Source: Planctomycetota bacterium
GTDB lineage: Bacteria > Planctomycetota > MHYJ01 > JACQXL01 > JACQZI01
Direction of reading: 5' to 3'
NCBI GenBank assembly: GCA_016207825.1
Contig: JACQZI010000008.1
Coordinates: 255,763 to 319,762 of the forward strand
DNA length: 64,000 bases
In this document: positions 1,528-12,564 of the stretch, piece after piece
How positions within the stretch are numbered: the first letter of the stretch is position 1
Layout of the letters: every line of letters starts with the position of its first letter
The notes under the pieces: model-generated
What the model saw: the letters and a program-made list of their open reading frames with translations, nothing else
What the model was told of the DNA's origin: nothing
The model's database searches: none
Position numbers and translations under genes: made by a program

Positions 1528-1556
1528 TTGACAATATACTGCGGAGTTTTTATACT
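1528..1556 (+). promoter_or_regulatory. Sigma-70 promoter of kinase gene, leaderless type
   Basis: TTGACA at 1528-1533 and TATACT at 1551-1556 with a 17-bp spacer. The ATG at 1564 lies seven bases past the -10 box, so transcription should begin at or next to the start codon. Confidence 0.75.
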
Positions 1557-1563
1557 CATCAAT

Positions 1564-3807
1564 ATGGTCGATACCAAATTAAAAATACGGGAATTTAAAT
1601 CTCTGGATGACTTCCGTTTATGGTGGGAGGGAGATGAAGTAACCCAGTTCTGCCAGCGCCATCCGGAAAAGGTTGCCCGCTTGAAATCACACCGCTGGGT
1701 GGCTCCCTGGATAACCAGGCATACCCAGTCCGAGGGTGAGGAAATAAAACAGCCCTCCGGCAAGTCGTTCGGCAAATATATCATAGAAAAGAAGCTGGGG
1801 CAGGGCGGGATGGGCGCGGTGTATTTAGCCCATGACCCGGCGCTCAACCGTAAAGTAGCACTCAAAGTAATGCTTCTGAAAGGAGAGCTGGCAACTGAAC
1901 GTTTTAACAGGGAAGCCAAAGCCTCTGCCAAGCTTAAACATCCGAATATTATCTCCATTTACGAAGTAGGCGCAGTTGGCAAATACCACTATTTTACCAT
2001 GGAATATATAGAAGGCAATTCGCTGGACAAGCTGATAGCCGATAAGAAATTAACACCCAAACGAACCGCAGAAATCATAAGAGATATGGCAAACGCCTTG
2101 CATTACGCCCATAGCCAGGATATCATCCACCGCGATATCAAGCCTGCTAATATCCTGATAGATAAACAAGGCAAGGTTTACTTAACCGATTTCGGCCTGG
2201 CAAAGGAATTAAGCGGGACCGAGCATTCCCTGACCATGACAGGGACGATTATGGGGACAGCCGATTATATGTCGCCTGAGCAGGCACAAGGCGATAAAAA
2301 CAAGATAGACGCCAGAAGCGATATATTCTCTTTAGGAGCGACTCTTTACCACGCACTCACCGGGCATACGCCGTTTAAAGGGAAGGAACTCTACCAGATA
2401 CTGGAAAGTGTGGTGCGTAAAGACCCGATTCCGCCCAGCCGTTATATAAAGAATCTATCCAAAGATATAGAAACCATTTGCCTGAAAGCACTGGAAAAAG
2501 AGCAAAAGACGCGTTACCTGACAGCCAAGGAATTAGCCGATGATTTAATCCGCTATATTAACGGGGAAGCTATATCAGCCAGGCCGATTGGGTTTATGGG
2601 CAGGATACTCCGCAAGGCTAAGCAAAATAAGATTGCCAGCTTGTCAGCCGGCGGGGTGATTGTGGTTTTAGCCGCATATTTCCTGATAAGCTATTTCGTT
2701 TCACAGGCTGATTTCAAAGGGAAAGTAGAAGAAAACACAAGACTGGCTTATCAGGAATTTGAAAGCGGCAATTACGAGAAAGCCATTGCCTACTGTGATT
2801 TGGTTTTGGATTTGGTGCATTACGATGAAAAGATAGATGAATTAAAAGATAAATGCGATAAAGCGATAACTGAAAGGAAACAAGGCGAGAAAAACACGGA
2901 AAAACGGCAGAAGGCCTTAGCCTTATTACAGAAATTAATAAGTATAAGAAATCCGCAAGAACAGATTAAAGTGGCGCAGGAAGCTTTAGAGATTGACCCT
3001 TCATGCACCGATGCTTATTTGTTTATGGGCGAAGCTTATGAGCTATCTTTCAATGATTATAAAAAAGCAATCGAGTGTTATACCAAGGCTATTAAAGCTG
3101 ATTCTTCACTGCCGGTTTTTTATTTTAAGAGAGCGTGTTGTTATAGGGAAACAGATGAAACAGGTAAGGCTATTAATGATTATACCAAGGCGCTTGATTT
3201 AGAGCCGAATAACACCGAGTTTTTATATGGACGGGCGCTGGCTTATGAAAAAAAGAATGATTGTGATAATATGATTAAGGATTTAAGCAGGGCAATTACT
3301 CTTAATCCTAAAGATGAAAGATTTTGCCGCAGGAGAGGCGGGTATTACATGTCGGTTAAAAAGTATGAATTAGCTGTAAAAGATCTTGATAGGGCTATAA
3401 AAATACGCCCTGACGCAGAAACTTATAATAATCTTGGGTTTTCATATGATAACATCGCAGTATCATATGATAATATAGGCTTATTCCCTGAAAGAGATGA
3501 AGCCTGTGATAACGCAATAAGAAATTATACTAAGGCCATTGAGTTGGACCCGGATTACGGCATGGCTTATTTTAATAGGGGATGCTGTTATTTTTTGAGG
3601 CTGAATAAATCGGCTCAGGCGATTGATGATTTTACAAAGGCGTGTAATAATGGTTGTAGCAACGCATACTGGTCGCTTGCTTTGTGTTATGCAAAAATGG
3701 AGCAGTTTGATAAAGCAATCGCCGCCGCCCAAAAATATATTGAGCTCTATCCGGAAAGCGATGAAGCAGCCTCTTTAAAAAACCAGATGAAGCAATGGCG
3801 GAAATGA
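1564..3807 (+). CDS. Hanks-type Ser/Thr protein kinase with TPR repeats
   Basis: A membrane-anchored eukaryotic-like Ser/Thr kinase (747 aa). An N-terminal '[17 protein letters not shown]' segment precedes the kinase domain, which shows the Gly-rich loop GQGGMGAVYLA, the VALK lysine, the catalytic loop HRDIKPANIL, the metal-binding DFGLA and MSPEQAQGD. A single hydrophobic segment (IASLSAGGVIVVLAAYFLIS, near residue 365) is followed by about 350 residues of TPR repeats, so the repeats probably lie across the membrane from the kinase. The start at 1564 is chosen because the paralogue at 12529 begins with the same sequence and because the promoter abuts it; an upstream TTG at 1528 would overlap the -35 box. 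Substrates cannot be deduced. Confidence 0.92.
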   Translation: MVDTKLKIREFKSLDDFRLWWEGDEVTQFCQRHPEKVARLKSHRWVAPWITRHTQSEGEEIKQPSGKSFGKYIIEKKLGQGGMGAVYLAHDPALNRKVALKVMLLKGELATERFNREAKASAKLKHPNIISIYEVGAVGKYHYFTMEYIEGNSLDKLIADKKLTPKRTAEIIRDMANALHYAHSQDIIHRDIKPANILIDKQGKVYLTDFGLAKELSGTEHSLTMTGTIMGTADYMSPEQAQGDKNKIDARSDIFSLGATLYHALTGHTPFKGKELYQILESVVRKDPIPPSRYIKNLSKDIETICLKALEKEQKTRYLTAKELADDLIRYINGEAISARPIGFMGRILRKAKQNKIASLSAGGVIVVLAAYFLISYFVSQADFKGKVEENTRLAYQEFESGNYEKAIAYCDLVLDLVHYDEKIDELKDKCDKAITERKQGEKNTEKRQKALALLQKLISIRNPQEQIKVAQEALEIDPSCTDAYLFMGEAYELSFNDYKKAIECYTKAIKADSSLPVFYFKRACCYRETDETGKAINDYTKALDLEPNNTEFLYGRALAYEKKNDCDNMIKDLSRAITLNPKDERFCRRRGGYYMSVKKYELAVKDLDRAIKIRPDAETYNNLGFSYDNIAVSYDNIGLFPERDEACDNAIRNYTKAIELDPDYGMAYFNRGCCYFLRLNKSAQAIDDFTKACNNGCSNAYWSLALCYAKMEQFDKAIAAAQKYIELYPESDEAASLKNQMKQWRK

Positions 3808-4085: not shown

Positions 4086-6167
4086 ATGTCCACTAAAGCG
4101 ATTCAGGCAAAAGTTATTATAGAAAAGCCGGAGCAACTCCAAATCCTCTGGCAGGTGCATTCTACTTTTAACCAGTATTTACCTTTTGTTATCAAGCAGA
4201 TGTACCGGATGAAACGCGGTGAAGCAGGTAAGGAGTATCAGGAAATATTTAATTCTATTTCTTCCAGCCAGAATGCTGTAGGTAAAATGGAAGCGGTAAC
4301 TGATTTAAACTGGGAAACCAGTAAGGCAGATAGTGAAAACGAGAGAGACCAATGGGCAAAAGTCGCGTCTAAACTGGTAAAAGATAAGAAAATACTATTT
4401 GACCGTAAGAAAGAATTACCGAATATTTCCAGTGAATTCCGCCGTAAAATCTTTGAGATGGCATTCCAACTTATTTCCGGACACGATGAATTGATGAAGA
4501 ATTGGAAATCAGAACATAAGAAATGGATAGAAGATAAGAAAAAATGGGAAGAGAAAAATCAGCAATATCTAAAGGTTAGATCAGTATTTGACCAGTTTGA
4601 AAAAGCGGTTGGCGGTAAGGTTACTGGTCGCCGTCAGCGATGGCATAAGTACATAGAATTCCTTAAATCCCATCCTGAATTAGCCGCTTGGCGTGGCAAA
4701 GAAGCCAAAGTGTTAGAAATCTCTGATAAGGCAATGAAGAAAATCGCTAAAGCTCCTCTTCGCAAGAAGAATTCTATTTATGCAAAGGAGTTCTTCAAGA
4801 TAAACCCAGAATTAGAAGCACTGGATAGAATTCATAATTACTATGAAAGAGAATTTGTCCGGCGAACCGCTAAAAGGCGCAATTCAGATGGATTCAAACA
4901 TCCGCCTACTTTTACACAGCCTTCTGCAATTACTCATCCGGCTTGGTTCCAGTTTAAGAAGGGACCTGGTTATCAGGCTTTGAATATTAAAGATAGCTCT
5001 GTGGAATTGAATACTTTTAAAGGCTGGCTGAAATTCACCTTTAAGGCAGACCCAAGATTATACCAATTTGAACCAGTCAAAATAGTTAAGACCACGCGCG
5101 GTGGCAAGGAAAAGGAAGCTGATAGCTATGAATGGACTGACTCCAATCTACAATGTAAGCGCCCGGTAGATATTAAGGGGATAAAATTAGTCTTTAGAAA
5201 TATTGAGTTTGAGAACAAGACTGGTAATCTTATTAGTGCAGACCCGTATCTTATTTTTACCTGCGATATACCTGATTTGTCCTCCAAGCATAAGCTCCGC
5301 CAGGATTCCTGCGATAAATATTCATTTGACTGGGTGCGTAAAAGAATAATGAACGACACGGACGGGAAAATACCTGTTACCTGTGCAATCGACCTTGGTA
5401 TCAGGCATTTAGGCGCAGCAACTGTCCGTAAAGATGGCAAGATTATCCGCACCAGAATAATCTGGGAAGATTCCGTCTACGATACTAATGATTCTACAAA
5501 TATTTACCAGCGAGGCCCCGGTCTTGGGCATATTGCTTTACACAAACGCCAGATTAGTAAGATTCGCAGTCTGCGCGGCAAACCGATTAAGGGAGAAGAA
5601 TCTTCTATTGAACTCCAACAGCATATTGATAATATGGGCGAAGACCGATTTAAGAAGGGTGCGCGTAAGATTATCCAGTTTGCCCTGGGATTAGATGGCA
5701 GTAAAAATAATGATATTAAGGCAGATTTAATACTCATAGAGAAACTCGGCGGGAAAACATTTGTGCCTATGGCAGAGAGAGAACATGGGATTAATAAAGC
5801 CTTGATTAATTGGAATCGCGGCAATTTGGTTACATGGATTAAACGCTTGGCTGTGGATGCCGGGTTAAGAGTGGTGGAAGTTCCGCCTGCGTATACTTCG
5901 CAAGTCTGCAGTAAATGCGGAGAATTTGGCAAGCGATATTCGTATGAGAAAAATAAGGAAAAACAGATAATCGTAAAAGATGACCCATGTGGTAAACTAT
6001 TTAGATGCTCTAAACTTGGTTGTTATGCAGATGTTAATGCTGATTATAACGCCTCGGTTAACCTCCATAAGAAGTTCTTTGGTGAAATGTCTGATTACCA
6101 GAACCTCAAAGACAAATTTGAGGAATTTAAGAAGAAAGTAGTTGACTTCTTTGCCGGAAATAAGTAA
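4086..6167 (+). CDS. cas12: Compact Cas12 effector, type V-B-like
   Basis: A predicted RNA-guided DNA nuclease of 693 aa, far shorter than Cas12b (about 1,100 aa). The split RuvC site is intact: D436 in 'CAIDLGIRHLGA', E552 in 'LILIEKL' and D649 in 'ADVNADYNAS'. Links to Cas12b that I recognise are 'FTxPSAITHPAWFQFKK' near 276-292, 'HIDNMGEDRFKKGARKII' at 513-530 and the 'NKALINWNRGNL' helix after RuvC-II. Unlike classical Cas12b it has a TnpB/Cas12f-like zinc ribbon between RuvC-II and RuvC-III (C608, C611, C641, C646; an extra C635). The Lys-rich helical N-terminal half should bind guide RNA. It has its own consensus promoter and is followed by a candidate tracrRNA, the array, cas4-cas1 and cas2. 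Alternative: a Cas12f-type effector, but the fused Cas4-Cas1 favours a V-B relationship. Confidence 0.88.
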   Translation: MSTKAIQAKVIIEKPEQLQILWQVHSTFNQYLPFVIKQMYRMKRGEAGKEYQEIFNSISSSQNAVGKMEAVTDLNWETSKADSENERDQWAKVASKLVKDKKILFDRKKELPNISSEFRRKIFEMAFQLISGHDELMKNWKSEHKKWIEDKKKWEEKNQQYLKVRSVFDQFEKAVGGKVTGRRQRWHKYIEFLKSHPELAAWRGKEAKVLEISDKAMKKIAKAPLRKKNSIYAKEFFKINPELEALDRIHNYYEREFVRRTAKRRNSDGFKHPPTFTQPSAITHPAWFQFKKGPGYQALNIKDSSVELNTFKGWLKFTFKADPRLYQFEPVKIVKTTRGGKEKEADSYEWTDSNLQCKRPVDIKGIKLVFRNIEFENKTGNLISADPYLIFTCDIPDLSSKHKLRQDSCDKYSFDWVRKRIMNDTDGKIPVTCAIDLGIRHLGAATVRKDGKIIRTRIIWEDSVYDTNDSTNIYQRGPGLGHIALHKRQISKIRSLRGKPIKGEESSIELQQHIDNMGEDRFKKGARKIIQFALGLDGSKNNDIKADLILIEKLGGKTFVPMAEREHGINKALINWNRGNLVTWIKRLAVDAGLRVVEVPPAYTSQVCSKCGEFGKRYSYEKNKEKQIIVKDDPCGKLFRCSKLGCYADVNADYNASVNLHKKFFGEMSDYQNLKDKFEEFKKKVVDFFAGNK

Positions 6168-6177
6168 TATATTATTG

Positions 6178-6420
6178 CCTTCGGGTGACTAACGCGAAGG
6201 TGCTATTAGCCTATAGGGTTAATATGCCGAATGGGGTACCACACTTTGTGGTCTTGTGTTAACAACCGCTGGCTGTAAGGGCTTCGGCCTGATGCAGACT
6301 TGAGCGAGTCCCGAAGAAATTCGGGATAAGTGCGGCGGCAAAACCCCGTCGAATCTTTCCTTTAGGTAGCGAGCGGGGGCGGAATTCAGAGCCCCGCTTA
6401 CCCGCTCGCTTGTTATTACT
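6178..6420 (+). ncRNA. Candidate tracrRNA with split anti-repeat and terminator-like 3' hairpin
   Basis: The gap between cas12 and the array is rich in hairpins: 6178-6200, 6238-6252 and CCCGAA-GAAA-TTCGGG at 6310-6325. It contains an anti-repeat in two blocks. Bases 6351-6364 (GAATCTTTCCTTTA) pair with repeat bases 18-31 with one G-U wobble, and 6385-6393 (TTCAGAGCC) pair with repeat bases 9-17. Together they cover 23 contiguous repeat bases, interrupted on the tracr side by 20 bases (6365-6384). The insert starts a 10-bp hairpin, AGCGAGCGGG (6368-6377) with CCCGCTCGCT (6401-6410), followed by a U-rich stretch, which may be the 3' terminator. The 'GGCAAAACCCCGTCGA' just before the anti-repeat recalls the tracrRNA of characterised Cas12b systems. 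No clear promoter is visible; read-through from cas12 is possible. Confidence 0.72.
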
Positions 6421-6543
6421 CGTTAAGGCTCAAGGAATTAGAGTGAATAGTGGATTTAGTATTTATAACTAATAACCTGAATGATGCGACCATTCGCATT
6501 TCGCTCTTTAACAATTTGGAAATTAACGAGTTAAATAAAAGCC
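6421..6543 (+). promoter_or_regulatory. Probable CRISPR leader
   Basis: This is a 123-bp AT-rich gene-free stretch between the tracr-like hairpin and the first repeat. It is placed as the leader because the degenerate repeat lies at the opposite end of the array. No confident promoter hexamers are seen. Confidence 0.5.
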
Positions 6544-6934
6544 ATAGGAACGGCTCTGAATAAAGGAAAGGTTCGGACACCGTATTTAGTGGGCACTTCG
6601 ACATTTATCGTTTCTCCTTATAGGAACGGCTCTGAATAAAGGAAAGGTTCGGACACAATTCGCGCCTGTAAAATAGACGTTCTCGAAGCTCATATAGGAA
6701 CGGCTCTGAATAAAGGAAAGGTTCGGACACTACGCTGAAATGTAAAGGAAAGTTGGTTCCGCATTCGCATAGGAACGGCTCTGAATAAAGGAAAGGTTCG
6801 GACACGGGATGTGCGAATGTGAACGTTTCCAGAATGTCAAGGGATAGGAACGGCTCTGAATAAAGGAAAGGTTCGGACACATGGGTATATACGACCCCGA
6901 AGAGATAGAATCTATCCATAGGAACGGCTCTGAA
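6544..6934 (+). CRISPR. CRISPR array: five 37-bp repeats, five spacers, one truncated terminal repeat
   Basis: The five repeats (6544-6580, 6620-6656, 6694-6730, 6769-6805, 6843-6879) are identical. They start ATAGGAACGGCTCTGAA and end AAAGGAAAGGTTCGGACAC. Spacers are 39, 37, 38, 37 and 38 bp. A sixth repeat (6918-6934) keeps only the first 17 bases. Complementarity with the tracr candidate and the degenerate right end both support transcription left to right, so spacers would follow the GGACAC end. I found no spacer match elsewhere in the window. Confidence 0.97.
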
Positions 6935-6979
6935 CCCCGCACATAAAAACCATGTGCGGGACAGGTGACGGAAAGGTTT
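6918..6979 (+). repeat. Terminal CRISPR repeat interrupted by a hairpin
   Basis: The first 17 bases of the repeat are followed by CCCGCACAT-(7-base loop)-ATGTGCGGG (about 6936-6960) and then, after a few bases, GGAAAGGTT, which matches repeat bases 22-30. The hairpin therefore appears to sit inside a last repeat whose two halves survive. It could cap the precursor crRNA transcript, or be a palindromic insertion. Confidence 0.6.
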
Positions 6980-7007
6980 TAAATTATCACACGGTTGCTT
7001 TTTACTT

Positions 7008-7107
7008 AAGTCATACCACCTAAATTTCCGAATAAACTATCAAGAACACACTTCAGCTATGCGTTTCCTTGACATTGTGTTATAGTGTTCGTGAGAGGGT
7101 ATGACTT
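7008..7107. promoter_or_regulatory. 10-bp inverted repeat flanking the cas4-cas1 upstream region
   Basis: AAGTCATACC (7008-7017) and GGTATGACTT (7098-7107) are exact reverse complements, separated by 80 bp. The right arm ends next to the GGAG ribosome-binding site of cas4-cas1. A TTGACA lies between the arms (7069-7074) but has no well-spaced -10 partner. It may be an operator or an mRNA structure, or chance. Confidence 0.35.
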
Positions 7108-7117
7108 GGAGTGGTAT

Positions 7118-8890
7118 ATGCCCAGCAATACAGAAAATCTGCCTGTTTATTGTCTCAATGCCTTTGTCTATTGTACACGTAGGTTTTATTATGAATATGT
7201 TGAAGGCTTGAGTGTCGTTAATGACGCGGTAGCTGATGGCCAGATAAAACACCGCCGGGTAGACGAAGGCGTTGGCAAAACGACCGCCCCGGACGAAGAG
7301 ACACTACAGACCCGCAGTTTCCATCTTTCGTCAGAGAAATACGGCATCACCGGTAAGATAGATGTTTTAGAAGAAAAGGATAGCGAATGTTATCCGGTAG
7401 AATATAAGAAACGAGCCTGTCCCCGTGACCAGAACGACCAGCCTTTTGTCTGGGATAATGATAAGATTCAACTCTGCGCCCAGGCATTACTGCTGGAAAG
7501 CAATAATTATGGGAATATAGCCAAAGGCTATCTTTATTACGTTGGCTCTAAGATACGGGTTGAAGTCGTTTTTGATGATACACTACGGCAGAAGACAATA
7601 GAGACCATTCAATCCGCCCGCGCCTTAGCCGATAGCGATAAAATTCCTGAACCGCTTAAAGATGATAACCGATGTATCCACTGTTCGCTTCTGCCTATCT
7701 GTTTGCCTGAAGAAACCGGCGCGATAAAATTACCACCAGACCCCGCCAAACCCATCAGACGGATTATCCCAGAAAAGTCAGAGGGCTATGTGGCTTATCT
7801 CAACCACCAGGGGGCGCGGGTCACCAAGAAAGGCGAGAATCTGGTTATCCTTGATTCCAAGGGCGAGAAATTGCAGGAACTTCATCTTTATCATCTGGAA
7901 CAGATAGTCGTCTTCGGGAATATTTCTATCAGCACACAGGCATTATCCTGCTTACTGGAAAATAATATCCCCATCGTTTATCTTTCCATCCACGGCAAGT
8001 TTAAGGGCGTAACCACCGGTATTCCGCCTAAGAATATCTCATTAAGAATGGCGCAATATGAGGCGGCGAATAACCAGGCGCTGGCGTTAGCAATCGCCCG
8101 TTCCATCACCGCTACCAAGGTTCATAACCAACGGGTGATGCTGATGAGAAATGCCCAGAATAACACGAAGCAAAGCGGAGTCCCGAATAATATCGGGAGT
8201 GAAGAAGCCAAATATAAACTCCAACATCTTATTTCGGAATGTGTAAATGCACCTGCTTTGGAATCATTGCTCGGATTTGAAGGCACAGCCGCACGGTATT
8301 ATTTTGGCTCGTTCAACGAGATGCTAAAGCGAAGCGACAGTCCCGAAAGATCGGGAATCCAATCGGGATTAAATGGCAATGGTTTTACCTTTTCCTTTGA
8401 GGGCAGGAATAAACGACCGCCGTCTGACCCGGTTAATGCCTTGTTATCTTTTGCATATGCACTATTGGCGAAAGACTGTTTCTCGGCTTGTTTGACCGTT
8501 GGCTTAGACCCGTATTTAGGGTTTTATCACCAGACTAAATATGGCCGTCCGGCATTGGCGCTTGACCTGATGGAAGAATTTCGTCCGATTATTGCCGACT
8601 CGGTTGTCCTGACGCTTATTAATAACAAGATGGTATCCAACAATGATTTCCTGATTAACAACGGAGCGAAGCGGAGTCCCGATAGCCATCGGGGAGGTGC
8701 CTGTTACCTTACAGAATCCGGCAGACGTTCTTTCTTTGAGGCGTATGAAAGACGGAGAAATGATGTGGTAACGCATCCGGTGTTTGGCTACCAAATGTCC
8801 TACGGTCGTGTTCTGGAAACACAGGCTCGTTTACTTGCCAGAGTAATTACCGGCGAAGCACCGGAATATATCGGCTTCAAGGTTAGATAA
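7118..8890 (+). CDS. cas4-cas1: Cas4-Cas1 fusion (spacer acquisition nuclease/integrase)
   Basis: This 590-aa protein joins a Cas4 nuclease to the Cas1 integrase, an arrangement characteristic of type V-B and some type I systems. The Cas4 part (1-215) has GKIDVL (D82), VEYKK (E95, K97), a Q-containing helix, and iron-sulfur cysteines C19, C186, C189 and C195. The Cas1 part (from about 222) has E388 in GFEGT, H471 in GFYHQ, and D483/E486 in DLMEEFRP, so both active sites look intact. The ATG at 7118 is chosen because GGAG lies six bases upstream and Cas4 homologues start near here; a GTG at 7085 is the alternative. Three short segments unlike other Cas1 proteins coincide with palindromic DNA elements and keep the frame. 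Confidence 0.95.
   Translation: MPSNTENLPVYCLNAFVYCTRRFYYEYVEGLSVVNDAVADGQIKHRRVDEGVGKTTAPDEETLQTRSFHLSSEKYGITGKIDVLEEKDSECYPVEYKKRACPRDQNDQPFVWDNDKIQLCAQALLLESNNYGNIAKGYLYYVGSKIRVEVVFDDTLRQKTIETIQSARALADSDKIPEPLKDDNRCIHCSLLPICLPEETGAIKLPPDPAKPIRRIIPEKSEGYVAYLNHQGARVTKKGENLVILDSKGEKLQELHLYHLEQIVVFGNISISTQALSCLLENNIPIVYLSIHGKFKGVTTGIPPKNISLRMAQYEAANNQALALAIARSITATKVHNQRVMLMRNAQNNTKQSGVPNNIGSEEAKYKLQHLISECVNAPALESLLGFEGTAARYYFGSFNEMLKRSDSPERSGIQSGLNGNGFTFSFEGRNKRPPSDPVNALLSFAYALLAKDCFSACLTVGLDPYLGFYHQTKYGRPALALDLMEEFRPIIADSVVLTLINNKMVSNNDFLINNGAKRSPDSHRGGACYLTESGRRSFFEAYERRRNDVVTHPVFGYQMSYGRVLETQARLLARVITGEAPEYIGFKVR
8167..8205 (+). repeat. Palindromic element copy A inside cas1
   Basis: A GCGGAG lead-in is followed by TCCCGA-ATAATA-TCGGGA (8181-8198). 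It encodes a KQSGVPNNIGSE-like insertion in a surface loop of Cas1 without breaking the frame. Confidence 0.7.
8329..8372 (+). repeat. Palindromic element copy B inside cas1
   Basis: An AAGCGAAGCGACAG lead-in is followed by TCCCGA-AAGA-TCGGGA (8341-8356) and a further ATCGGGATT. It encodes an insertion before the conserved 'FSFEGRNKRPPSDPVNALLS' motif of Cas1. Confidence 0.72.
8664..8698 (+). repeat. Palindromic element copy C inside cas1
   Basis: A GGAGCGAAGCGGAG lead-in is followed by TCCCGAT-AGCC-ATCGGGGA (8677-8695). It encodes AKRSPDSHRG between 'DFLINNG' and 'GACYLTESGRR', which are normally nearly adjacent in Cas1. Confidence 0.75.
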
Positions 8891-8892
8891 AT

Positions 8893-8910
8893 CCCCTCTG
8901 ACAAGAGGGG
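8893..8910 (+). promoter_or_regulatory. Hairpin between cas1 and cas2
   Basis: CCCCTC-TGACAA-GAGGGG forms a six-pair GC-rich stem in the 34-bp gap; the G-rich right arm and the following TAGGGG could serve as the cas2 ribosome-binding site. It may tune cas2 translation. Confidence 0.45.
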
Positions 8911-8924
8911 TAGGGGTGTGTAAA

Positions 8925-9206
8925 ATGAATTATTACATTATCGCCTATGACATCGCCGACCCCAAAAGATTAAACCGCATCCATAAAACACTTAAGGATT
9001 ACGGCAACCCTTTACAGTTTAGTATCTTTGAGTGTTACTTGACACGTAAGGATTTAATTATACTACAGGATAAATTAGAGAGAATTATCAATAACGCCGA
9101 AGACCGGATTATTGTTCTTGCTTTATGCCCGCCCTGCAAAGACCGGATAACGATTATCGGCAAACAGGAAATGCAGGAGCAACCAAATGGGGCAGTAGTA
9201 GTATAA
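8925..9206 (+). CDS. cas2: Cas2 (spacer acquisition)
   Basis: A 93-aa protein with the Cas2 ferredoxin-like pattern: 'YYIIAYDIADPKRLNRIHKTL' at the N-terminus, 'YGNPLQFSIFECYL' in the middle and the 'DRIIVLALCPPC' strand. Cas2 dimers bridge Cas1 dimers in the integration complex. The ATG at 8925 gives the standard MNYYIIAYD start; a GTG at 8916 would add three residues. The last ten residues (EQPNGAVVV) look like a short tail. It is the last gene of the cas set, on the same strand as cas4-cas1. Confidence 0.95.
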   Translation: MNYYIIAYDIADPKRLNRIHKTLKDYGNPLQFSIFECYLTRKDLIILQDKLERIINNAEDRIIVLALCPPCKDRITIIGKQEMQEQPNGAVVV

Positions 9207-9224: not shown

Positions 9225-9917
9225 TTACTTCCTCGTCACCAATATATCCAAATACAACCCGGCCTGCTCCTTGATATACTTATAATCAATATGGCATTCG
9301 CCGCCGGTTTCGAAGTCATTCAGGTTAAGCGATTTATCAACGTACCCGGCGACCATCTCATTAGTTGTATCGTTTTCTTCCTTGATAATCGCCGTATCAT
9401 ATCCGCTTGCCACGATATTGGCGCCTGCCTGAATGAGGCGCTGGTTTATCGCCGCCTTGAAACTTCCTTTCAATGCTACCTTGGTAATCAATATGGGCAT
9501 GCCGTTAACCTGCTCATCACCGGAAAGCAACCCCTCGGCGATATTATCCTTGGTGAGCCAGAGTGCCGTTAGGGGAGCGACACCGAGCCCGTCCACTTTA
9601 GTGCCGGTAAATGGCAATACTCTGGCAAGCACCCCGCGCGAGTAATTCTCCTTGGCGTGCTCCACGGCTTCCTTGAAACGCTTTGCCGGGATGCCGTCCA
9701 CCGTCTCGTAAGCCTTTTCAAGATTATTCTTGCCGACCACCTGGCTTTGGTATCTGATTTCATCAGGAATTTTCTTCAAGAGCTTGGCGTTGGTCCGGAC
9801 GGCATTGATGTGGAATCCGTCGCGCCATTTCTCTCCCAAATCCTTAAAGGGCTCGGTATACACGGGGACGGCCTTGGTCATGTGCAGTAAGAGCTTCTCA
9901 TCGCTTTTCTTAGGCAT
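9225..9917 (-). CDS. Unknown protein of a duplicated family, internally shortened copy
   Basis: This 230-aa protein has no recognised domain. It is nearly identical to the broken gene at 62837-63573 but lacks 40 residues present there between 'QVVG' and 'KNNLEKAYE', an in-frame 120-bp loss. Conversely it keeps a 'DGLGVAPLTALWLTKDN' segment lost from the other copy. The full-length family protein would be about 270 aa. There is no signal peptide or membrane segment. A good ribosome-binding site (AAAGGAG, six bases from ATG) fixes the start. The upstream 583 bp is non-coding and is also conserved in the other copy. Confidence 0.8.
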   Translation of the reverse strand: MPKKSDEKLLLHMTKAVPVYTEPFKDLGEKWRDGFHINAVRTNAKLLKKIPDEIRYQSQVVGKNNLEKAYETVDGIPAKRFKEAVEHAKENYSRGVLARVLPFTGTKVDGLGVAPLTALWLTKDNIAEGLLSGDEQVNGMPILITKVALKGSFKAAINQRLIQAGANIVASGYDTAIIKEENDTTNEMVAGYVDKSLNLNDFETGGECHIDYKYIKEQAGLYLDILVTRK

Positions 9918-10637: not shown

Positions 10638-12529
10638 TTAGCGTTGTTCCTGTAGGCAGATTTCGCAATCGCGAATTAAATCTTCCATCTGTTTCTTCAT
10701 GGCATGGCCCGGCGCTATTTTAATCAGTTTTTTAGCGTCTTCCATTGCTTTTTGGTAATCTTTTAGTGCCACATAAACATTAGCCCGGTTATAATAATTA
10801 TCCGGGTCTGCCGGGTTTAATTCTAATGCCTTGGAGAAATTTTCCATTGATTTAGCATAGTTGCCTTTTGCGTAATAACAAATGCCATTCAAGGAATAAG
10901 AACCCGAGTCCGCCGGGTTTAATGAAATGGCTTTTTCAAAATTCTTAATTCCCTCGTCCCAGTTTCTCAAATTGGTATACGCATAACCGATAAAATAATA
11001 ATACGTTGGGTATTCCGGGTCGGTTTTTGAGGCGTCTGAGGCGATTTGCAGTTGTTTTTGAGGGTCACCCGCGGCTTGCGTTATCAGCTCTTTTATTTTT
11101 TTCCTTTGTTCATTCAGCGCCTGCAGGCGTCTGGCTTCCTCTTCCTTTAGGCGTTTTTCATCTTCCAAACGCTTATTTTCCGCTTCCGCTTTATCGGTTT
11201 TTTCCTTTATTGCCTTGGCGCATTTATCCCGCAGGGCAATAACTGAATCATCGTCCGGTGCGAGCGCAAGCAGGCTGGCACATTCGGTCTTGGCTTCCTC
11301 GAATTTCCCTTCTTCGTAGTAATCCAGGGCGTTTTGGCGGTGCCGGGCAATACGGAGTGCGGTTTCGTTTGATGATATAACAGAGTTTACCGTAAAAACA
11401 GCCAGCGTAATGGCTATCGCCACCGCGGACGCCGATAATGCTTTATGCTTCATTATAACGCGGTATAATTTGGCAAGCGGTCCGACCGGTCGGGCGGAAA
11501 TGCTTTTCCCGTTTAAATAGTTTTTAATATCGCCGGCCAGTGCGCCGGCAGTTTGGTAACGGTCTTTCCTTTCTTTTTCCAGTGCTTTCAGGCAGATGGT
11601 TTCGATATCTTTAGGCAATCCTCGGACAAGGCTGCTCGGTGGTGCAGGAGCTTTGCGTATCACTTTTTCCAGTATCTGGTATAATTCCTTGCCTCGGAAC
11701 GGAGAATGTCCGGTTATGGCATGGTAAAGGGTGGCGCCTAAAGAGAAGACATCGCTCCTGGCATCTATGTTTTTCTTTTCACCCCGCGCCTGTTCAGGCG
11801 ACATGTAATCGGGCGTACCCAGTATCGTCCCGCTTAAGGTAAGCGAATGTTCGATTCCATCCACATCCTTTGCCAGCCCGAAATCCGTTAAATACGCCTT
11901 GAGTTTATCCTGAGCCTGGTCGAAGGATTTATCTATCAGGATATTAGATGGCTTAATATCGCGGTGGATGATTCCCTGGCTGTGGGCGTAATCCAGCGCC
12001 GAGGCAATGCTGGAGATGATTTCGGCAATCCGGCGTACCGGTAGTTTTTTATCCTTACTGTGGATGCAATCCTCAAGTGAAGGGCCTTCGATATATTCCA
12101 TGGTGAAATAATGGTATTTGTCCACTGTGCCGACTTCATAGACCTGGATGATATTGGGGTGTTTTAGCTTGGCAGAGGCGCGCGCCTCGCGCATGAAGCG
12201 TTCGACGGCGTCCTTGCTTTTAAGGACATTATTTTCAAGGCGACCTGCCTGTTTAAGCCCGGGTCGAGCGCCAGGTAGACCACACCCATACCGCCCTGTC
12301 CCAATTTTTTTGTCAGCTGATATTTACCGAAAAACTTGGCCGAGACCTGCGGGGCAGTGTATTCTTTTTTTAGCTCCTCCAGCCACGGTTTTACCCAGCG
12401 GTGTACTGCCAGCCGGCTGATTTTTTCCGGGTGGCGGCTGCGGAACTGGGTGACCTCCGCGCTCGCCCACCAGGCATTAAAATCCACCATCGATTTAAAC
12501 TCCCTGATTTTAAGCTTGGTTTTTTCCAT
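10638..12529 (-). pseudogene. Ser/Thr protein kinase with TPRs, split by a -1 frameshift
   Basis: A paralogue of the kinase at 1564. The N-terminal 121 residues (from the ATG at 12529; '[13 protein letters not shown]', Gly loop [17 protein letters not shown]) run out of frame near 12205. The rest (HRDIKPSNIL, DFGLAKD, MSPEQARGE, a membrane segment, a Glu/Lys-rich coiled coil, three TPRs) follows in another frame. Adding one A to the AAAA run after 'ATGTCCTT' would restore '[13 protein letters not shown]', matching the intact paralogue, so this is one lost base: a sequencing error or a recent mutation. A further DNA insertion encoding SFDQAQD lies after 'NILIDK'. Confidence 0.85.
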
Positions 12530-12535
12530 GTGTAA

Positions 12536-12564
12536 ATAATACAAATATTGCTTTATTTTATCAA
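12536..12564 (-). promoter_or_regulatory. Sigma-70 promoter of second kinase, leaderless type
   Basis: On the minus strand TTGATA (12559-12564), a 17-bp spacer and TATTAT (12536-12541) stand six bases from the ATG at 12529. Confidence 0.7.

What the first reader, a model, noticed from the sequence alone, without database searches (positions are those of the whole stretch)
4086..9206. Compact type V CRISPR system that mixes Cas12b and TnpB/Cas12f features
The effector is only 693 aa but carries Cas12b-like segments (HPAWFQF, HIDNMGEDRFKKGARKII) and is paired with a fused Cas4-Cas1, as in type V-B. Yet between RuvC-II and RuvC-III it keeps a TnpB-like four-Cys zinc ribbon that classical Cas12b lacks. 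All RuvC, Cas4 and Cas1 catalytic residues are present and the array is intact, so the system looks functional. It could be an early or minimal V-B branch.
Basis: partly seen in the sequence, partly recalled or inferred. Interest (0 to 1): 0.92.

Follow-up and report, generated by a model that had tools for sequence, protein, structure and literature searches.

The report
Compact Cas12b (V-B2-type) CRISPR locus
A planctomycete genome carries a complete, small CRISPR immune system whose cutting protein is half the size of ordinary Cas12b; it belongs to an already profiled but rarely seen compact Cas12b family, and its cutting domain is unusually close to that of a transposon protein of the kind from which such systems arose.

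Summary
At 4086-9206 there is a 693-aa Cas12 with an intact RuvC triad (D436, E552, D653) and four ribbon cysteines, then a CRISPR array, a fused Cas4-Cas1 and Cas2. It is not a new subtype: the effector matches two compact 'Cas12b / CAS-V-B' profiles in PADLOC end to end (E 3.6e-161, 6e-140), i.e. what recent classifications call V-B2. It lies outside canonical Cas12b (62.9 bits, cut-off 150). Membership in the wider V-B lineage rests on Cas12b-specific N-lobe motifs (absent from Cas12g and every TnpB tested), the Cas4-Cas1 fusion, and a GGACAC repeat end shared with three canonical Cas12b arrays. I add a predicted tracrRNA with a bipartite anti-repeat (6351-6364, 6385-6393) and a nearest transposon relative, an IS607-type TnpB of the same phylum (34-38% identity over RuvC). 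The exact branch is unresolved; profile scores place it between Cas12b, Cas12g and TnpB. The 'zinc ribbon that classical Cas12b lacks' is not exclusive: one full-length Cas12b of the phylum also has four cysteines there. Most likely it is a working tracrRNA-dependent DNA-targeting system; RNA targeting is the main rival.

The parts
4086..6167 (+). Compact Cas12b-family effector (V-B2 type), 693 aa; RuvC D436/E552/D653; zinc ribbon C608, C611, C641, C646; N-lobe motifs LWQVHSTFN (21-29) and HPAWFQF (284-290)
6200..6410 (+). Predicted tracrRNA: structured 5' part, 3' bipartite anti-repeat (6351-6364 GAATCTTTCCTTTA and 6385-6393 TTCAGAGCC); ends are approximate
   Evidence: best duplex with the repeat in the locus, -34.7 kcal/mol against -24.3 for the next site; -36.7 against -30.7 for the best of 60 shuffles of the intergenic region; fold z -4.4; cofold
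6544..6880 (+). CRISPR array: five identical 37-nt repeats ATAGGAACGGCTCTGAATAAAGGAAAGGTTCGGACAC with spacers of 39, 37, 38 and 38 nt
6881..6917 (+). Fifth spacer, between the last perfect repeat and the degenerate terminal repeat
   Evidence: sequence
6918..6984 (+). Degenerate terminal repeat interrupted by a 35-nt hairpin segment (6935-6969); marks the leader-distal end of the array
7085..8890 (+). Fused Cas4-Cas1 (601 aa from GTG 7085; probable true start ATG 7121)
8916..9206 (+). Cas2 (96 aa)

Best explanation
A complete and probably working type V CRISPR-Cas system of the compact Cas12b (V-B2) kind. Inferred order of events: Cas4-Cas1 with Cas2 takes up new spacers at the upstream (effector/tracrRNA) end of the array; array and tracrRNA are transcribed on the + strand; the tracrRNA anti-repeat pairs with the repeat, and a host RNase III-like activity matures the crRNA; the 693-aa Cas12 binds this dual guide, recognises a PAM next to a DNA target and cuts with its single RuvC site. 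Shown by sequence: genes, catalytic residues, array, anti-repeat, family. Inferred: transcription, processing, PAM, DNA (rather than RNA) as the target, and activity.
For: Full-length match to two compact Cas12b profiles (E 3.6e-161, 6e-140). Homologues in two other planctomycete genomes (46-50% and 27-31% identity over the full length), one with a 13-14-repeat array just downstream. N-lobe motifs shared with canonical Cas12b: LW..H...N in 3 of 6 phylum Cas12b and in both solved Cas12b aligned; HP.[WF]..F in 5 of 6 phylum Cas12b; none in 2 Cas12g and none in the TnpB-type proteins tested. Fused Cas4-Cas1 as in four canonical V-B loci of the phylum (33-35% identity). Repeats of both arrayed compact loci and of three canonical V-B loci end in GGACAC; Cas12g repeats do not. 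Bipartite anti-repeat between effector and array. All RuvC, Cas4 and Cas1 catalytic residues present.
Against: Alignment to canonical Cas12b is weak outside RuvC, and canonical Cas12b form a clade that excludes it (98/95). Sequence and profile scores to Cas12g, an RNA-targeting type, are at least as good as to Cas12b, so the target could be RNA. No protospacer was found, so no PAM. The structure prediction failed (pLDDT 39.7). No expression data.
Confidence: 0.8

Rival explanations
1. An RNA-targeting effector that works like Cas12g (RNA-guided RNase with collateral activity) and merely carries a V-B type adaptation module.
For: The best PDB sequence match of the family profile is Cas12g (E 1.7e-23 against 2.6e-14 for BthCas12b), colinear from WED to the end; profile-profile comparison 3.8e-19 over 375 columns for Cas12g against 2.7e-15 over 110 columns for Cas12b.
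Against: Repeat 3' end and both N-lobe motifs are Cas12b-like and absent from Cas12g. The two Cas12g genomes found here hold no intact Cas4-Cas1 fusion. Part of the score gap reflects the large inserts of Cas12b, which break local alignments.
Confidence: 0.15
2. A separate capture of an IS607-type TnpB by a CRISPR array and V-B-type adaptation genes; the Cas12b resemblance is convergent or patchwork.
For: The nearest RuvC outside the family is an IS607-type TnpB of the same phylum (L008; 34-38% identity, E about 1e-25 to 1e-27; profile E 1e-29); AU tests do not reject the family plus this TnpB as one clade (p 0.31).
Against: That TnpB matches only from RuvC onward and lacks the Cas12b N-lobe motifs. 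Family plus Cas12b as one clade is equally unrejected (p 0.27). At 27-31% identity among its own members the family is old.
Confidence: 0.12
3. A decayed locus kept by chance.
For: Degenerate terminal repeat with an insert; three dispersed palindromic repeats inside cas1; only five spacers.
Against: Terminal repeat decay is usual at the leader-distal end (general knowledge); five identical repeats; the palindromes sit in frame in loops of variable length and leave all catalytic residues; all three ORFs are open.
Confidence: 0.06

Closest known systems
Compact Cas12b / type V-B2 (PADLOC PDLC01655 and PDLC01654; 'V-B2', 'Cas12b2' in the literature)
   Same: Full-length match, size about 690-750 aa
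   Different: Nothing found that separates it; the equation of the PADLOC compact profiles with the name V-B2 is from size, the published list and memory, not from a labelled reference sequence
Canonical Cas12b (V-B1; NCBIfam NF033949; AacCas12b, BthCas12b)
   Same: RuvC and the preceding EDRxKK segment, N-lobe motifs, Cas4-Cas1 fusion, repeat 3' end
   Different: About half the size; score 62.9 against a cut-off of 150; four-Cys ribbon kept (as in one of six canonical Cas12b of the phylum, L016)
Cas12g (V-G; PDB 6xmf, 8i16)
   Same: Similar size; best PDB score; colinear match over WED-RuvC; ribbon cysteines
   Different: No Cas12b N-lobe motifs in Cas12g; different repeats; no intact Cas4-Cas1 fusion in the two Cas12g genomes seen
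IS607-type TnpB (L008, genome G123, beside a serine-recombinase tnpA)
   Same: Closest RuvC and ribbon outside the family
   Different: 467 aa, transposon context, no array, no shared N-lobe

Membership tests
Compact Cas12b (V-B2) | Full-length match to compact Cas12b profiles | tested here: met
   E 3.6e-161 over 21-684 and 6.1e-140 over 1-669
Compact Cas12b (V-B2) | Named V-B2 reference sequence as nearest neighbour | not tested
   no labelled V-B2 reference was available; name taken and from memory
Type V-B (wide sense) | Cas12b-specific N-lobe motifs | tested here: met
   absent from Cas12g and TnpB
Type V-B (wide sense) | Cas4-Cas1 fusion plus Cas2 | tested here: met
   the NCBIfam Cas4g/Cas1g model also fires on canonical V-B fusions, so it does not separate I-G from V-B
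Type V-B (wide sense) | tracrRNA with anti-repeat | tested here: met
   predicted from sequence only; not shown to be transcribed
Type V-B (wide sense) | Grouping with Cas12b in a RuvC tree | tested here: inconclusive
   same side of a 91/92 branch with Cas12b, TnpB L008 and three other TnpB; one clade with Cas12b not rejected (p 0.27) and not shown
Type V-B (wide sense) | PAM-dependent dsDNA cleavage | not testable with these tools
   no protospacers found
Canonical Cas12b (NCBIfam NF033949) | Score over the curated cut-off of 150 bits | tested here: not met
   62.9 bits
Cas12f | Full-length match to Cas12f models | tested here: not met
   Cas12f2 63.8 bits, cut-off 450, RuvC part only; PADLOC Cas12f at most 57.9 bits
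Cas12g | Full-length match to Cas12g models | tested here: not met
   49.6 bits, C-terminal part only; true Cas12g of the phylum score 890-980 bits

The most novel reading that the evidence does not exclude
The compact family is a surviving intermediate between IS607-type TnpB and both Cas12b and Cas12g: it keeps the transposon-like RuvC and ribbon and has already gained the Cas12b N-lobe, tracrRNA and adaptation module, so V-B and V-G share a root near it.
Probability: 0.25. Interest if true: 0.65.

Novelty: new member of a known kind. Interest (0 to 1): 0.42.

Why it matters
Members are rare (3 of 392 planctomycete genomes sampled, the window's own included, at full-length score), and I found no paper in the searched library that characterises one. 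This locus is complete: effector, predicted tracrRNA, array, Cas4-Cas1, Cas2. It gives a ready construct to test whether a 693-aa Cas12b cuts DNA or RNA, and a nearby TnpB with which to test how V-B effectors arose from transposons.

Tried and rejected
Structure prediction with two sequences gave pLDDT 39.7, so no fold search was run; loci from the genome search were not handed to the folding tool because its rule does not list them. Relatives in viral contigs: none in two scans. Protospacers: 20-nt starts of all five spacers gave no exact match in viral contigs, and the whole array gave none in phages or plasmids; no self-match in the own genome beyond a 19-nt hit at E 0.6. Rfam: no hit. Anti-repeat at the L007 locus: only marginal (-29.9 against -29.0 for the best shuffle). 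Shuffled repeats can reach -32 kcal/mol in the window locus, so the anti-repeat claim rests on the rank gap and the two sequence blocks, not on energy alone. Huge-phage hits L055/L056: the longest ORFs were not the matched frame, so they were left out of the tree. The papers of Altae-Tran 2023 and Tordoff 2025 are not held.

Full report
Observation. The effector has RuvC residues D436, E552 and D653, and a ribbon C608-x2-C611 ... C641-x4-C646 between RuvC-II and RuvC-III. Cas4 (C30, D93, E106, K108, C197, C200, C206) and Cas1 (E399, H482, D494/E497) keep their active-site residues by alignment with four V-B fusions. The array has five identical 37-nt repeats and five spacers, the last one closed by a degenerate repeat that carries a 35-nt hairpin segment; the hairpin occurs once in the genome.

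What family. PADLOC's two compact Cas12b profiles match nearly the whole protein (E 3.6e-161 and 6.1e-140), while long Cas12b profiles, Cas12f, Cas12g and Cas12u profiles match only the C-terminal part. NCBIfam's Cas12b equivalog is not reached (62.9 against 150). In 392 planctomycete genomes the compact profile finds three full-length members, this one included: G145 (the same contig as VGYV01000169.1, a named Planctomycetota MAG; 46-50% identity) and G287 (27-31%), plus the RuvC part of a TnpB in G123. The G287 member is followed by an array and has no adaptation genes beside it; its genome holds separate cas4 and cas1 genes elsewhere. The published type V list already separates V-B1 and V-B2 (PMC10137550), and an inactivated V-B3 is described in PMC12669027. 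That the PADLOC compact profiles are the V-B2 of those papers is my reading from size and from memory.

Relation to Cas12b, Cas12g and TnpB. Two N-lobe motifs link the compact family to Cas12b: LW..H...N near the N-terminus (3 of 6 canonical Cas12b of the phylum, and both solved Cas12b aligned) and HP.[WF]..F in the WED region (5 of 6). Neither occurs in the two Cas12g or in any TnpB-type protein examined, and each is expected in 0-3% of shuffled sequences of the same composition. The segment before RuvC-II (HIDNMGEDRFKKGARKII) has counterparts in AacCas12b and BthCas12b. Against this, profile comparison scores the compact family closer to an IS607-type TnpB (1e-29) and to Cas12g (3.8e-19, 375 columns) than to Cas12b (2.7e-15, 110 columns), while Cas12b and Cas12g hardly see each other. 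A tree of RuvC blocks puts the compact family, Cas12b, this TnpB and three other TnpB on one side of a 91/92 branch, with Cas12g and IS605-type TnpB on the other, keeps canonical Cas12b as its own clade (98/95), and leaves the order inside unresolved. None of the eight clade hypotheses tested is rejected by AU tests (p 0.10-0.43). So 'early branch' and 'reduced branch' are both open. Cas12f was not in the tree; its exclusion rests on profile scores.

The ribbon. In five of the six canonical Cas12b of the phylum the first C-x2-C pair is broken (for example TSRQCSRTG), but L016, a 1400-residue Cas12b well over the NCBIfam cut-off (496.6 bits), has SSRYCSHC ... VCANTKC at this place. The ribbon is therefore best read as an ancestral trait kept in part of Cas12b, not as a mixture of two systems.

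Guide RNA. Between effector and array, on the + strand, GAATCTTTCCTTTA (6351-6364) and TTCAGAGCC (6385-6393) are complementary to two adjacent stretches of the repeat, with 20 nt between them. This is the best duplex site in the locus by 10 kcal/mol and exceeds all 60 shuffles of the intergenic region. The 5' part is strongly structured (z -4.4); part of that structure is a copy of a dispersed palindrome (6306-6326), so the z-score is not all due to a tracrRNA. V-B is known to use a tracrRNA (PMC6452270). Repeat 3' ends GGACAC agree between the window, G287 and three canonical V-B loci.

Adaptation. The Cas4-Cas1 fusion is 33-35% identical to the fusions of four canonical V-B loci. The NCBIfam model that it matches is named for I-G, but it fires on those V-B fusions too, so its name does not argue for a type I origin.

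Function. I judge DNA targeting by a dual-guide RuvC nuclease most likely, by membership in V-B. The closeness to Cas12g, which targets RNA (PMC10511118 abstract), leaves RNA targeting as the main rival. No protospacer was found, so no PAM can be named.

Noticed in passing
8165-8198, 8335-8372, 8661-8696 (inside cas1) and 6306-6326 (predicted tracrRNA): Copies of a short palindromic repeat (GCGAAGCGGAGTCCCGAT..ATCGGG) dispersed through the genome: 32 matches to GAGTCCCGAN{2,10}TCGGG against 0 for the reversed control. Three lie in frame in cas1, adding roughly 9-16 aa each in loops of variable length, reminiscent of Rickettsia palindromic elements.
   Followed up: partly
6935-6969: A 35-nt hairpin segment (CCCGCACAT..ATGTGCGGG) replaces TAAA inside the terminal degenerate repeat; the hairpin occurs once in the genome.
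   Followed up: partly
1528-3807 (+) and 10638-12544 (-): Two paralogous Ser/Thr kinase-TPR genes in opposite orientation flank the CRISPR locus (inverted matches of 70-90%); the second one is split into two overlapping ORFs, as by a frameshift.
   Followed up: no
L008 / L022:6560-8576: IS607-type transposon in genome G123 whose TnpB is the nearest transposon relative of the compact Cas12b RuvC domain; no other TnpB in the 392 genomes comes as close.
   Followed up: partly
L023:3598-6930: A Cas12b-related ORF of at least 1110 aa cut off by the contig end, below the NCBIfam cut-off (125.7 against 150): possibly another divergent Cas12b.
   Followed up: no
9225-9917 (-): 230-aa protein beside cas2 without any Pfam or NCBIfam match.
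   Followed up: no
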